A stretch of 64,000 nucleotides of DNA from Gaiellales bacterium (GTDB lineage: Bacteria > Actinomycetota > Thermoleophilia > Gaiellales > JAICJC01). The stretch lies in contig DASUHM010000002.1 in assembly GCA_036273515.1 (NCBI GenBank), forward strand, positions 64,748 through 128,747. The letters run 5' to 3'. Shown here piece after piece: positions 7,005 through 62,394 of this stretch; positions within the stretch are counted from its first letter, which is position 1, and each line of letters starts with the position of its first letter. The position numbers and the translations under genes are program-made. A model generated the notes under the pieces. It saw only the letters and a program-made list of their open reading frames with translations, was not told the DNA's origin and ran no database searches.

Positions 7005-7077
7005 TGGGCGGTACTGGGCTCGAACCAGTGACCCCCAGCTTGTCGAGCTGGTGCTCTCCCAACTGAGCTAACCGCCC
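7005..7077 (-). tRNA. tRNA-Val (anticodon GAC)
   Basis: A complete 73-base cloverleaf. The acceptor stem GGGCGGT/ACCGCCC, D stem GCTC/GAGC, anticodon stem CCAGC/GCTGG around loop TCGACAA, and T stem ACTGG/CCAGT with TTCGAGC all pair fully. The anticodon GAC reads valine GUC codons, abundant here. The discriminator base is A, and CCA is not encoded (TAA follows), so it must be added enzymatically. A TATCCT box at 7109-7104, 26 bases before the 5' end, could be its promoter. Confidence 0.96.
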
Positions 7078-16038: not shown

Positions 16039-16455
16039 CTACGCCGCGCGCCCGGGGTTGTCGCAGATCGCCTGGAAGGCGGTGTCGATCACCGCCGACG
16101 TTGCGCAGATCGTCTGCAGGCCGAGCGTCTTGTAGAACTTCGCCCGGGCGGGGTCGAGCACGCGCGTCACGACGCACGGCACGTTGAAGCGCTTCTGCGC
16201 CACCTGGGCGATCACGATGTTCGTGTTGTCGCCGTCCGTGGCGATGATCGCCGCGTCGGCGCTCTCGATGCCGGCGTCGACGAGGACGTCGGTGTCGAGG
16301 CCGTGGCCCTGAAGGAAGCGTCCGGGCCAGTCCTCGGGGAGGCGCCCGAGCGCCTCGGGGTCTTCGTCGATGACCGTCACGTCGTTGCCGTCGTCGGTCA
16401 TCCGCAGGGCCAGCGCCGAACCCACCCGGCCACAGCCCACAATGAGCACTTTCAT
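16039..16455 (-). CDS. TrkA-N-only NAD-binding protein
   Basis: A 138-residue protein consisting of just the RCK nucleotide-binding domain (IVGCGRVGSALA, VIDEDPEAL, IIATDGDNTNIVIAQVA). There is no TrkA-C domain: it stops shortly after TICATSAVIDTAFQAI, where relatives of ~220 residues continue. I start it at ATG 16455; upstream the frame runs into a repeat element. It leads the run with trkA, thrC and thrB. It may pair with the full-length TrkA. Confidence 0.82.
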   Translation of the reverse strand: MKVLIVGCGRVGSALALRMTDDGNDVTVIDEDPEALGRLPEDWPGRFLQGHGLDTDVLVDAGIESADAAIIATDGDNTNIVIAQVAQKRFNVPCVVTRVLDPARAKFYKTLGLQTICATSAVIDTAFQAICDNPGRAA

Positions 16456-16479: not shown

Positions 16480-16679
16480 GGCGGTTGATCGGCGAGACCG
16501 CGATGTCCTGGGCGGCTGCGAACCGAGCAGCGCACGGACGCAGGTCGCGTTCATACCGCGTTGTAAGGGCGCGGCCGAGAGGCGCGATGCGACGGTTCGC
16601 AGCCGCAGCGCCGCCAGCATTCCACCGGAACAGTGGCCGCCGTGCGTCCAGGCGCACGTGATCTTGCCGATCAACCGCC
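16480..16679. mobile_element. MITE-like element, copy A (200 bp)
   Basis: The ends are a perfect 14-bp inverted repeat: GGCGGTTGATCGGC at 16480-16493 and its complement at 16666-16679. Inside, GGCGGCTGCGAACC (16511-16524) is mirrored near 16594-16606, so the element can fold extensively. On the minus strand it matches copy B at 32384-32564, with 43 of 47 identical bases from 16554 down to 16508 plus shared ends. It encodes no protein of its own. It lies between the divergent promoters of trkA and hom. I see no target-site duplication. Confidence 0.75.
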
Positions 16680-16727: not shown

Positions 16728-18002
16728 ATGAGCGAGACGCGCATCGGACTGCTCGGCTTCGGCACCGTCGGATCGGCCGTCCACCGGCTGCTCGGCGAGA
16801 GCGCCGAGGCCATCGAGCGGGTCACCGGCGGGCCCGTCGTGGTGGCCGGCGCGCTCGTCCGCGACCCCTCCCGGCGGCGGTCGGCGCCTGACGGCCTGCT
16901 CACCACCGACTTCGCCCGCCTGCGTGACGACCCGTCGATCAGCGTGGTCGCCGAGGTGATGGGCGGGATCGAGCCGACACGCACCCACCTGCTCGAGCTG
17001 ATGGCCGCCGGCAAGTCGGTCGTGTCGGCCAACAAGCAGCTGCTGGCGCGCCACGGCGAGGAGCTCTTCGCCGAGGCCGAGCGGCGCGGTGTGCAGCTGC
17101 GCTTCGAGGCCAGCGTGTGCGCCGCGATCCCGGTCGTGAAGGTGTTGCGCGAGTCGCTGATCGTGACCGGCGTCCACCGCATCGACGGCATCGTGAACGG
17201 CACGACGAACTTCATCCTCACGCGCATGGTCTCCGCCGGCGACACCTACGCCGCCGCGCTGCACGAGGCGCAGGAGCTGGGCTACGCGGAGGCCGACCCC
17301 ACCGAGGACGTGACCGGCGCCGACGCCGCCGCCAAGATCGCGATCCTGGCGTCGATCGCCTTCCACACGCGGGTACGCACGGACGAGGTCGACCACGTCG
17401 GCATCGACGGGCTCGACCTGGTCGACGTCCGCCACGCCTCCGAGCTCGGCTACCAGGTGAAGCTGATCGCCTCGGCGATGCAGGTCGGCGAGGCGGTGTG
17501 CGCCCGCGTCCATCCCTGCTTGCTCGCGGCCGACCATCCGCTCGCGTCGGTACAGGGCGCGTTCAACGCGGTGATGCTGCGGGGGAGCTCGATCCGCGAG
17601 GTCATCCTCGAGGGCCCCGGCGCCGGTGGCGAGGAGACCGCCACGGCCGTGATCGGCGACCTGCTGGCCGTGATCGGGACGTCGGGCACCGGCTTCCTGC
17701 AGCACGACGGCTACTACCGCGGCCTGCACCGGCTGCCGCTCGACGAGCTGCGCAGCCCCTTCTACCTGCGCTTCGAGGTGGACGACGAGCCCGGCGTGCT
17801 CGCCCAGGTTGCCCAGGCGCTCGCCAAGGAGGGCGTGTCGGTGGCCCAGGTCGTGCAGCACTCCGGACGGGGCGTCCACATCGTCATCCTCACCCACACG
17901 GCCCGCGAGGGCTCGGTGCGGTCGGCCGCGCGCGCGGTCGCGGGGCTCGGCTTCAGCCGGTCTGCGCCGGTAGTGCTTCCGGTGCTCGCACGCTCGGCCT
18001 GA
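16728..18002 (+). CDS. hom: Homoserine dehydrogenase
   Basis: A 424-residue enzyme that reduces aspartate semialdehyde to homoserine. The Rossmann motif GFGTVGSAV is near residue 9, NKQLLA follows near 101, and VNGTTNFIL near 157 and GADAAAKIAILA are the family signatures. The carboxy-terminal ~85 residues (FEVDDEPGVLAQVAQALAKEG) are an ACT domain for threonine feedback inhibition. Its product feeds thrB and thrC on the opposite strand. The last 50 bases overlap the end of the convergent MFS gene. Confidence 0.95.
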   Translation: MSETRIGLLGFGTVGSAVHRLLGESAEAIERVTGGPVVVAGALVRDPSRRRSAPDGLLTTDFARLRDDPSISVVAEVMGGIEPTRTHLLELMAAGKSVVSANKQLLARHGEELFAEAERRGVQLRFEASVCAAIPVVKVLRESLIVTGVHRIDGIVNGTTNFILTRMVSAGDTYAAALHEAQELGYAEADPTEDVTGADAAAKIAILASIAFHTRVRTDEVDHVGIDGLDLVDVRHASELGYQVKLIASAMQVGEAVCARVHPCLLAADHPLASVQGAFNAVMLRGSSIREVILEGPGAGGEETATAVIGDLLAVIGTSGTGFLQHDGYYRGLHRLPLDELRSPFYLRFEVDDEPGVLAQVAQALAKEGVSVAQVVQHSGRGVHIVILTHTAREGSVRSAARAVAGLGFSRSAPVVLPVLARSA

Positions 18003-32383: not shown

Positions 32384-32564
32384 GGATGGTTGATCCCACG
32401 CCCCCGCGCGCCTGGACGTCAGGATGTTGGAAGGGGTTCGGTCCGCGGGTGGGCTGCGCCTCGGTCGCGCCCATATTTCGGGCCCAATATGAACGCTCCC
32501 TGCGTCCTTGCGCTGCTCGGTTCGCAACCGCCCAGAACTTCACGGGGCGCGGGATCAACCATCC
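32384..32564. mobile_element. MITE-like element, copy B (181 bp)
   Basis: Terminal inverted repeats of 21 bp match at 20 positions (32384-32404 and 32544-32564; ends GGATGGTTGATC and GATCAACCATCC). From 32489 to 32535, 43 of 47 bases equal copy A, and GCGCCTGGACG and a GCGCCTC..CGCGCCC block are shared in the left half. No protein-coding capacity. The right arm contains the last codons and stop of the glycosyltransferase gene; the left end lies 42 bases from the kinase start. Confidence 0.75.
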
Positions 32565-33811
32565 ACCAGCGCGTCGTCGAGCAGGCGCTGGGCGATCCCC
32601 TGCCAGCTCCAGCGGGCGACGACGGCGGCGCGGGCGACCGCGCCCAGCCGGGCCCGTTCCTCCGGCGGCAGGGCGAGCAGCCCGGCGAGCCTGCGGGCCA
32701 GGTCGGCGCTCGTCCCGTCGAACGTGATCCCGGCCTCGCCGAGCCCGGCCGCGACCTCGGCCAGCCCCGAGTGGTCGGACACGACCGGGACGACCTCGCA
32801 CGACGCCGCCTCGGCCGCGACCATGCCGAACGCCTCGGGCAGCACCGACGGCACGACGACCGCCTCTGCCAGCGGCACCAGCAGCTGCAGCTGCTCATGG
32901 TCCATCGCGCCGGTGAAGATCGTGCCGGGCGGCGCGGCCGCCTCGAGCTCGGCGCGGGCGTCGCCGAAGCCGACCACCACGAGACCGACGTCCGGGTGCC
33001 ACGGGCCCACGTCGCGCCAGGCCTCGAGCAGCAGGTGCACGCCCTTCTGGCGCATGAGCTTGCCGAAGTAGAGGACGAAGCGGCCGAGGCCCGCGAGCGC
33101 CGCGGAGGCGCCCGCGTCGGCCGAGCGCTCGGCCGGCTCCCCGCCCGCTCGCCCTGCCTCCGCCTCGAGCAGGCGCCGCAGCGCGGCGAGCGACCCGCGA
33201 CCGGGCGCGAACTCGTCGGTGTCGACGCCCGGCGGGACGATCCGCATCGCGTTCCGGTACGCCCCCTCCCCCAGGAGCTCCTTCGTCACCGCGACGATGT
33301 GCTCCGACCCGGCGTACACGGCGGCAGCGCCGGCCAGGCTCTCGCGCGCGAGGGCGGCCAGCGGCGGCCGGCCCCGGATCGCGTACTCGAGCTCCGAGCC
33401 GTGCACCTTGACGGCGAAGGGCGTCCCGTCGCCGCATGCCGCCGAGGCCACCGGCCCGCCCATGATGGCGTGGTTTGCGAGCACGAGGTCGGTCGGGGCC
33501 GCGTCGAGCTCCGCCCGGACCGCGGCGACGTTCGCGGCGGTGTAGCGGTCGAGCTCGGCCGCCGTCAGATCGGCGACGTGGCGGGCCTCGATGCCCTCGT
33601 AGCGGTCGACCACGAAGGTGGGCAGGAGCGGCCCGGCGTCCGGCCGCACCACCCGCACCCGCGGCCCGAGGTCGAACCGCTCGGCCCGCCGCTGCTGGCA
33701 GACGACCACGACGTCATGCCCGAGCCGGCCCCAGGCACGGGCGATGGCTTGCGTGTAGATGTTCGAGCCGGTGCCCTCGAGCAGGTAGCCGTGCCACAGG
33801 ATCAGCCGCAC
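32555..33811 (-). CDS. GT4-type glycosyltransferase
   Basis: A 418-residue two-lobed glycosyltransferase of family 4 type. The donor-binding half has VLYFGKLMRQKGVHLLLEAW near residue 250, VVGFGDAR, and EAFGMVAAEAASCEVVPVV with the catalytic glutamates of the EX7E motif. It would use a nucleotide-sugar to build a glycolipid or polysaccharide. Start GTG 33811 is set by TAGCCT 7 bases upstream. The stop codon lies within the inverted repeat of a MITE-like element. Confidence 0.85.
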   Translation of the reverse strand: MRLILWHGYLLEGTGSNIYTQAIARAWGRLGHDVVVVCQQRRAERFDLGPRVRVVRPDAGPLLPTFVVDRYEGIEARHVADLTAAELDRYTAANVAAVRAELDAAPTDLVLANHAIMGGPVASAACGDGTPFAVKVHGSELEYAIRGRPPLAALARESLAGAAAVYAGSEHIVAVTKELLGEGAYRNAMRIVPPGVDTDEFAPGRGSLAALRRLLEAEAGRAGGEPAERSADAGASAALAGLGRFVLYFGKLMRQKGVHLLLEAWRDVGPWHPDVGLVVVGFGDARAELEAAAPPGTIFTGAMDHEQLQLLVPLAEAVVVPSVLPEAFGMVAAEAASCEVVPVVSDHSGLAEVAAGLGEAGITFDGTSADLARRLAGLLALPPEERARLGAVARAAVVARWSWQGIAQRLLDDALVDG

Positions 33812-61855: not shown

Positions 61856-61875
61856 AGGAGGCGCGCCGCCGGTCG

Positions 61876-62394
61876 TTAGGACGCAGGATGGCCGCTGAGC
61901 ATGGAGTGCTCACGACCGAGCGTGGTCGTCGCGACCGAGATGACCGCGGCGACGACGATCACGATCGGCGCCCACCACGCGCCGGAGAGCGAGCCGGCGA
62001 TGCCCAAGGCGTTGTCGAGCGAGTCCGTGCCCGGCCCGATCGCCGAGACGCCGGTGGCGATTGCGATGACCATGAGGTTGTACTCGTAGCCGCCGGCGGT
62101 GACGAAGAAGCCCTTCGGCCAGTGGACGGTGATGATCGCGTTCAGCATCACGACGACGAGGGCGATCGCGGCGAACGGCGTCAGCAGGCCGAGCGCGAAA
62201 AGCAGGCCGCCGAAGAACTCGGCCGCGCCGGCGAGCAGCGCCATCGTCGTGGGCCAGCGGAAGCCGAGCTTCGTGAACATGCCCGTGGTCCCGGCCCGGC
62301 CCGGGCCCTCGAACCAGCCGAAGAGCTTCTGCGAGCCGTGCGCCGCCAGGGTCAGGCCCATGACGACCCTGAGAATGAGTAGTCCGAGAGTCAC
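61876..62394 (-). CDS. DoxX-family membrane protein
   Basis: A 172-residue, four-helix membrane protein. LILRVVMGLTLAAHGSQKLFGWFEG at the amino end and LAGAAEFFGGLLFALGLLTPFAAIALVVVM mark the DoxX family, linked in other bacteria to sulfur-compound oxidation or redox stress. GGAGG precedes GTG 62394 at about 8 bases. Confidence 0.9.
   Translation of the reverse strand: MTLGLLILRVVMGLTLAAHGSQKLFGWFEGPGRAGTTGMFTKLGFRWPTTMALLAGAAEFFGGLLFALGLLTPFAAIALVVVMLNAIITVHWPKGFFVTAGGYEYNLMVIAIATGVSAIGPGTDSLDNALGIAGSLSGAWWAPIVIVVAAVISVATTTLGREHSMLSGHPAS

What the first reader, a model, noticed from the sequence alone, without database searches (positions are those of the whole stretch)
16480..16679. A MITE-like element family with at least two copies in 64 kb
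Seen directly: copy A (200 bp) has perfect 14-bp terminal inverted repeats, and its minus strand matches copy B at 32384-32564 in 43 of 47 core bases (16554-16508 against 32489-32535), with shared GGTTGATC ends and shared blocks in the other half. Neither copy encodes a protein. Inference: non-autonomous elements moved by a transposase elsewhere, or a REP/BIME-like structural repeat. Copy A separates the divergent promoters of the thrCB run and hom, so it may influence threonine gene expression.
Basis: partly seen in the sequence, partly recalled or inferred. Interest (0 to 1): 0.62.

Follow-up and report, generated by a model that had tools for sequence, protein, structure and literature searches.

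The report
Actinobacterial MITE family with conserved hairpin core
The two repeats belong to a large family of small, protein-free mobile DNA elements in soil actinobacteria that share a fold-conserved hairpin core found in more than a hundred related genomes, which suggests the hairpin does a job of its own.

Summary
In detail: copy A (16480-16679) has perfect 14-bp inverted ends, and copy B (32384-32564) matches its core at 43 of 47 bases. But there are far more than two copies: this genome (a Thermoleophilia MAG, G000) has 34 hits to a core model plus about a dozen core-less relatives. Both window sites are empty in two congeners; of 14 further sites aligned to the closer one, 13 are empty. 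So the family moves: it is MITE-like. New here is a conserved core (GTCCTC[A/G]GTCG - covarying stem-loop - CTCCCTGCGTCCT) in 157 of 299 class genomes and in other actinobacterial families, while the terminal arms differ between genera yet stay self-complementary within each copy. Wobble pairs occur almost only on one strand, so selection seems to act on a single-stranded fold. In one family the ends carry a stop codon and a Shine-Dalgarno sequence and fill gaps between operon genes. Ends abut TA; young copies in one relative have 3-bp TTA/TAA duplications. No transposase with matching ends was found; IS630 and Y1 types are not supported. Copy A lies between a TrkA-N gene and hom, not beside thrC; an expression effect is untested. 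Best reading: an ERIC-like MITE family with an unusually conserved structured core of unknown function.

The parts
16480..16679 (+). Copy A, full element. The + strand is the strand with the more stable fold (model R1 strand)
16480..16493 (+). Copy A left terminal arm, GGCGGTTGATCGGC
16666..16679 (-). Copy A right terminal arm (perfect inverted copy)
16514..16525 (+). Copy A inner stem, 5' side (GGCTGCGAACCG)
16593..16604 (+). Copy A inner stem, 3' side (CGGTTCGCAGCC)
16513..16604 (+). Copy A conserved core, model R1 match, 62.3 bits
16547..16572 (+). Copy A apical hairpin of the core (GCGTTCATAC..GTAAGGGCGC)
   Evidence: position by reading the sequence
32384..32564 (-). Copy B, full element (R1 strand is minus)
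32384..32397 (+). Copy B left terminal arm, GGATGGTTGATCCC
32551..32564 (-). Copy B right terminal arm; read on the minus strand it gives the glycosyltransferase gene its present stop codon TGA (gene 32555-33811, minus)
32434..32530 (-). Copy B conserved core, model R1 match, 60.1 bits

Best explanation
A and B are two of at least 45 copies of a MITE-like non-autonomous mobile element. Each full copy is one long imperfect hairpin: outer arms (terminal inverted repeats), an inner stem, and a conserved core with an apical stem-loop. Shown: copies are dispersed, and most G000 sites examined are empty in the nearest relative; the core is conserved in sequence and covaries in structure across a class and beyond; ends abut TA. 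Inferred: copies are inserted in trans by a DDE-type transposase at TA, CTAG or TTA/TAA sites, close in behaviour to IS5- or IS630-type MITEs. Inferred: the single-stranded hairpin (RNA or ssDNA of the R1 strand) is under selection, either as part of the mobility cycle or because it makes insertion into operons tolerable. In the f3 family the ends bring a stop codon and a Shine-Dalgarno sequence, so an insertion between two genes keeps both readable; that this works as translational coupling is a hypothesis.
For: Many copies. Empty sites for A and B in G002 and G001; 13 of 14 further aligned sites empty in G002. Core conservation: 157/299 class genomes, 76/114 genera, also other families of the phylum. 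Structure: 21 of 29 pairs with double changes, covariation 0.335 against 0.137 in shuffles, all slid versions far lower. Arms: 386/434 paired cells against 301+-10 when arms are permuted among copies. Strand: 37 wobbles on the R1 strand against 3 on the other; the R1 strand folds better in 88 of 89 apical hairpins. TA at ends: 15/31 left and 9/31 right against a 0.9% background. Young copies: TTA/TTA, TAA/TAA, TAA/TAA in G052; TA on both sides in at least four of eight G159 copies. Operon fit with stop codon and Shine-Dalgarno sequence; ribosomal junctions.
Against: No transposase with matching ends was found (only part of any one genome could be read). The four best-resolved empty sites show no duplication in the window's genome. 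Arms that change from genus to genus are odd for a DDE transposon, whose ends should match its enzyme. Core-less copies suggest that the core is dispensable for spread, which leaves its conservation unexplained. Some copies stay in one place for long: rpsJ-rplC is occupied in three genomes of two genera.
Confidence: 0.78

Rival explanations
1. An ssDNA element moved by a HUH (Y1) transposase, like REP/RAYT or IS200/IS605: the strand-specific hairpin would be the substrate, and insertion next to TA without duplication would follow.
For: Strand-specific structure; no duplication at the best-resolved G000 sites; CTAG at many ends; Y1 genes occur in G000 (C8:47281, C8:68976) and co-occur with the core within the order (64 both, 18 core only, 9 Y1 only, 11 neither).
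Against: Outside the order the association is negative (6 both, 69 core only, 30 Y1 only). No confident core hit lies within about 1.5 kb of 30 Y1 genes, and none beside the G000-G002 Y1 genes read. G012 has 15 elements and no Y1 match. Young G052 copies have 3-bp direct duplications.
Confidence: 0.12
2. A cis-regulatory RNA (leader, attenuator or intercistronic coupler) that is conserved, not mobile; multiple copies arose by slow duplication.
For: Covarying core, strand bias in operons, exact fit between stop and start codons, long retention at rpsJ-rplC.
Against: Most sites are empty in a congener; copies lie in divergent, convergent and tandem contexts beside unrelated genes; no Rfam match.
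Confidence: 0.06
3. The pairing of the arms is not selected but made by template-switch correction of quasi-palindromes during replication (compatible with the MITE reading; it rivals only the claim of selection on the fold).
For: Arms are long near-perfect palindromes whose two sides change together within a copy; the process is established for quasi-palindromes (own knowledge).
Against: It should also erase the C.A mismatches (U.G on the other strand) that persist at two core pairs in a third to over half of the sequences, and it does not explain the invariant internal-loop sequence across a class.
Confidence: 0.3

Closest known systems
ERIC/IRU/RU-1 elements of enterobacteria
   Same: Small (127 bp) repeats shared by several genera, TIR, TA at the ends, stable stem-loop transcript, intergenic and co-transcribed, orientation matters for the effect on neighbours (PMC2229807).
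   Different: No sequence relation known; here the ends differ between genera while the core is conserved, the DNA is GC-rich, and the range is class-wide or wider.
RUP of Streptococcus pneumoniae (IS630-Spn1 MITE)
   Same: 107 bp, about 108 intergenic copies, TIR, inserts at TA (PMC2229807).
   Different: RUP has a matching IS630; here several element-rich genomes gave no IS630 match at all.
Correia/NEMIS of Neisseria
   Same: About 100-155 bp MITE in two length classes, transcripts fold into long hairpins (PMC2229807).
   Different: Not described with a covarying core conserved across a class, as far as I know.
IS5-family (PIF/Harbinger-like) MITEs
   Same: TTA/TAA 3-bp duplications and TA/CTAG targets are typical of this superfamily (own knowledge).
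   Different: No IS5-type transposase with these ends is known here; the family was not searched.
REP/BIME with RAYT (Y1) transposases
   Same: Palindromic, intergenic, single-strand structure.
   Different: Much longer, and not next to Y1 genes.

Membership tests
Bacterial MITE | Short, no protein coded | tested here: met
   Lengths about 87-318 bp, mostly 100-206; no conserved ORF seen in the copies
Bacterial MITE | Terminal inverted repeats | tested here: met
   31 G000 copies, 386/434 arm cells paired
Bacterial MITE | Dispersed copies, sites empty in relatives | tested here: met
Bacterial MITE | TA at the termini | tested here: met
   TA 15/31 and 9/31 against 0.9% background; in G000 -1 A 44/62, -2 T 28/62
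Bacterial MITE | Target-site duplication | tested here: inconclusive
   3-bp TTA/TAA in three of three complete young G052 copies of one arm type; none at four well-resolved G000 sites
Bacterial MITE | Autonomous transposon with the same ends in the genome | tested here: inconclusive
   None by end pattern in G041, G249, G051 or in 0.97 Mb of G052; assemblies are fragmented
IS630 (Tc1/mariner) MITE | IS630 transposase present | tested here: not met
   No match in G002, G041, G051, G012, all rich in elements; no match over cut-off in any of 11 genomes
REP/RAYT | Linked or co-occurring Y1 transposase | tested here: not met
IS5-family MITE | IS5-type transposase with matching ends | not tested
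Any Rfam RNA family | Match to a curated covariance model | tested here: not met
   No match covering an element

The most novel reading that the evidence does not exclude
The core is a functional structured RNA (or a structured single-stranded DNA) that an actinobacterial mobile element carries, conserved across families and beyond one class, while its terminal arms turn over freely; that is, a mobile element defined by an internal RNA-like fold instead of by its ends.
Probability: 0.3. Interest if true: 0.85.

Novelty: new variant of a known kind. Interest (0 to 1): 0.6.

Why it matters
If right, about half of the Thermoleophilia genomes sampled carry a structured mobile repeat that I found neither in Rfam nor in the papers searched. 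It would be a large natural experiment on how insertions between operon genes are tolerated (stop codon and ribosome-binding site built into the ends). It also raises a direct question: what does an invariant internal loop do in an element whose ends are free to change?

Tried and rejected
IS630 transposase and Y1 transposase as movers: not supported. A 'no target duplication' reading from G000 empty sites was softened after the young G052 and G159 copies. The global alignment of empty sites was poor; the junctions were read by hand and by flank BLAST. Rfam, plasmid and phage searches: no match to an element. A pattern scan of IMG/VR gave one 15.7-kb contig. The weak R1 match at 61858-61951 (E 0.05) lacks the invariant loop and is taken as chance. 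Literature searches found no description, but the library lacks most subscription journals.

Full report
Observation. Copy A (16480-16679) has perfect 14-bp inverted ends and copy B (32384-32564) has perfect ends of another sequence; the core match is 43 of 47 bases as stated. Both fold far better than dinucleotide shuffles (z = -7.7 and -5.1). The neighbours of A are a TrkA-N gene (16039-16455, minus) and hom (16728-18002, plus); thrC-like and thrB-like genes follow behind a second TrkA gene. B lies between a glycosyltransferase gene and a histidine kinase gene, both on the minus strand.

Copy number. A and B hit 44 and 48 places in their own genome (G000, 4.07 Mb, 98 contigs). A covariance model of the core (R1) finds 34 copies in G000, 23 and 36 in two congeners, and 7 to 25 in the other genomes counted. 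About a dozen further G000 relatives, mostly near 105 bp, have the arms but lack the core; several share nearly the same deletion junction. Some copies sit at contig ends, as expected of repeats.

Mobility. At the orthologous places in congener G002 (about 86-92% identical in the flanks), A and B are absent and only short unaligned spacers remain; the more distant G001 shows no element there either. Flanks of 30 other copies were searched in both genomes. Fourteen sites aligned in G002 from both sides: 13 are empty and one holds an element-like sequence. The ancestral sequence at several of these sites has CTAG or CTAA at the boundary. These data support insertion after divergence; precise loss in G002 is not excluded site by site but is an unlikely explanation for 15 of 16.

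Conserved core. BLAST with B already matched in 25 of 61 genomes. Aligned cores from many genomes show an invariant internal loop, GTCCTC(G/A)GTCG and CTCCCTGCGTCCT, around an apical stem whose sequence changes freely but stays paired. For the named structure 82.0% of cells pair against 69.3% in shuffles, 21 of 29 pairs have changes on both sides, and the covariation score is 0.335 against 0.137; slid versions reach at most 0.133. The set is biased: the sequences were found by similarity to A and B, and relatedness inflates such scores. No Rfam family matches an element.

Strand. In the inner stems, departures from Watson-Crick pairs are C.A in the B orientation (37) and hardly ever G.T (3); on the opposite strand the former are G.U wobbles. 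Most come from two pairs. The R1 strand folds better in 88 of 89 apical hairpins, by 6.5 kcal/mol on average; for full elements the gain is 14.7, of which about 4 is base composition. Selection thus seems to act on one strand as a single strand, RNA or ssDNA. In operons the R1 strand is mostly antisense to the genes (27 against 7; the set, read by eye, leans the same way). These are top-scoring hits that include repeated junctions, so the bias is indicative only; in G000 itself it is weak (8 against 5).

Ends and operon fit. Arms differ between genera but are complementary within each copy; in 31 G000 copies 386 of 434 arm cells pair, against 301 +- 10 if arms are exchanged among copies. In the f3 family copies fit between genes with the upstream stop codon at the left end, TA|GTGCCCCTTCC, and the right arm GGAAGGGGCAC followed by the start codon, so that a Shine-Dalgarno sequence is built in. 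Ribosomal and ATP-synthase junctions are among them: rpsJ-rplC in three genomes of two genera, rpsQ-rplN, rplE-rpsN, upstream of rplT, atpF-atpH (gene names by reading the sequences). Gene calls in these loci come from a simple codon-based finder written here.

Target. TA stands next to the arms far more often than the 0.9% background. Young G052 copies have direct 3-bp repeats TTA/TTA, TAA/TAA and TAA/TAA; G159 copies are often flanked by TA, mostly within CTAG, on both sides. Four well-resolved G000 insertions show no duplication, and in G000 the T of TA tends to be at one end only. The duplication question is therefore open for the window's own genome.

Mover. IS630 transposases are absent from several element-rich genomes. 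Y1 transposases co-occur within the order but not outside it, and elements are not near them; no correction for phylogeny was made. No long element with the same ends was found. IS5-type enzymes, which the duplications suggest, were not searched.

Judgement. By the features listed for bacterial MITEs (PMC2229807 and PMC10969869) this is a MITE-like family, closest in behaviour to ERIC. It differs in the conserved, covarying core and in the free turnover of its ends. The function of the core is unknown; core-less copies indicate that it is not strictly needed for spread.

Noticed in passing
L280 1-982 (G052:C6): Two elements of one arm type in tandem at a contig start; the first is split by about 650 bp of AT-rich DNA with a 168-aa lipoprotein-like ORF (no Pfam match). 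Cargo capture or a chimeric contig.
   Followed up: partly
L116, L118, L128: An element between rpsJ and rplC in three genomes of two genera, so some copies are kept for a long time in an essential operon.
   Followed up: partly
G000:C8:47281-47613 and C8:68976-69308: Two Y1-type transposase genes about 22 kb apart, with no element beside them.
   Followed up: partly
L015, L025, L022, L024: Some G000 copies carry extra near-perfect hairpin modules (GTGCAAGCCC..GGGCTTGCAC, GCGTCTGCGTGATCGCAGACGC, GTCAAGGGCATCTGCCCTTGAC), as if built from exchangeable hairpins.
   Followed up: no
window 32555-32566: Insertion of B changed the C-terminus of the glycosyltransferase: its stop codon now lies in the element's arm, while G002 has TAG at the empty site.
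   Followed up: yes
L335 (IMGVR_UViG_3300026300_000009): One contig of the viral collection holds the core; it may be host DNA.
   Followed up: no
L065 784-1098: Sub-threshold match to the cspA thermoregulator RNA (44.3 bits, gathering 78).
   Followed up: no
window 7005-7077 (minus): A tRNA, the only Rfam match in the window at gathering threshold.
   Followed up: no
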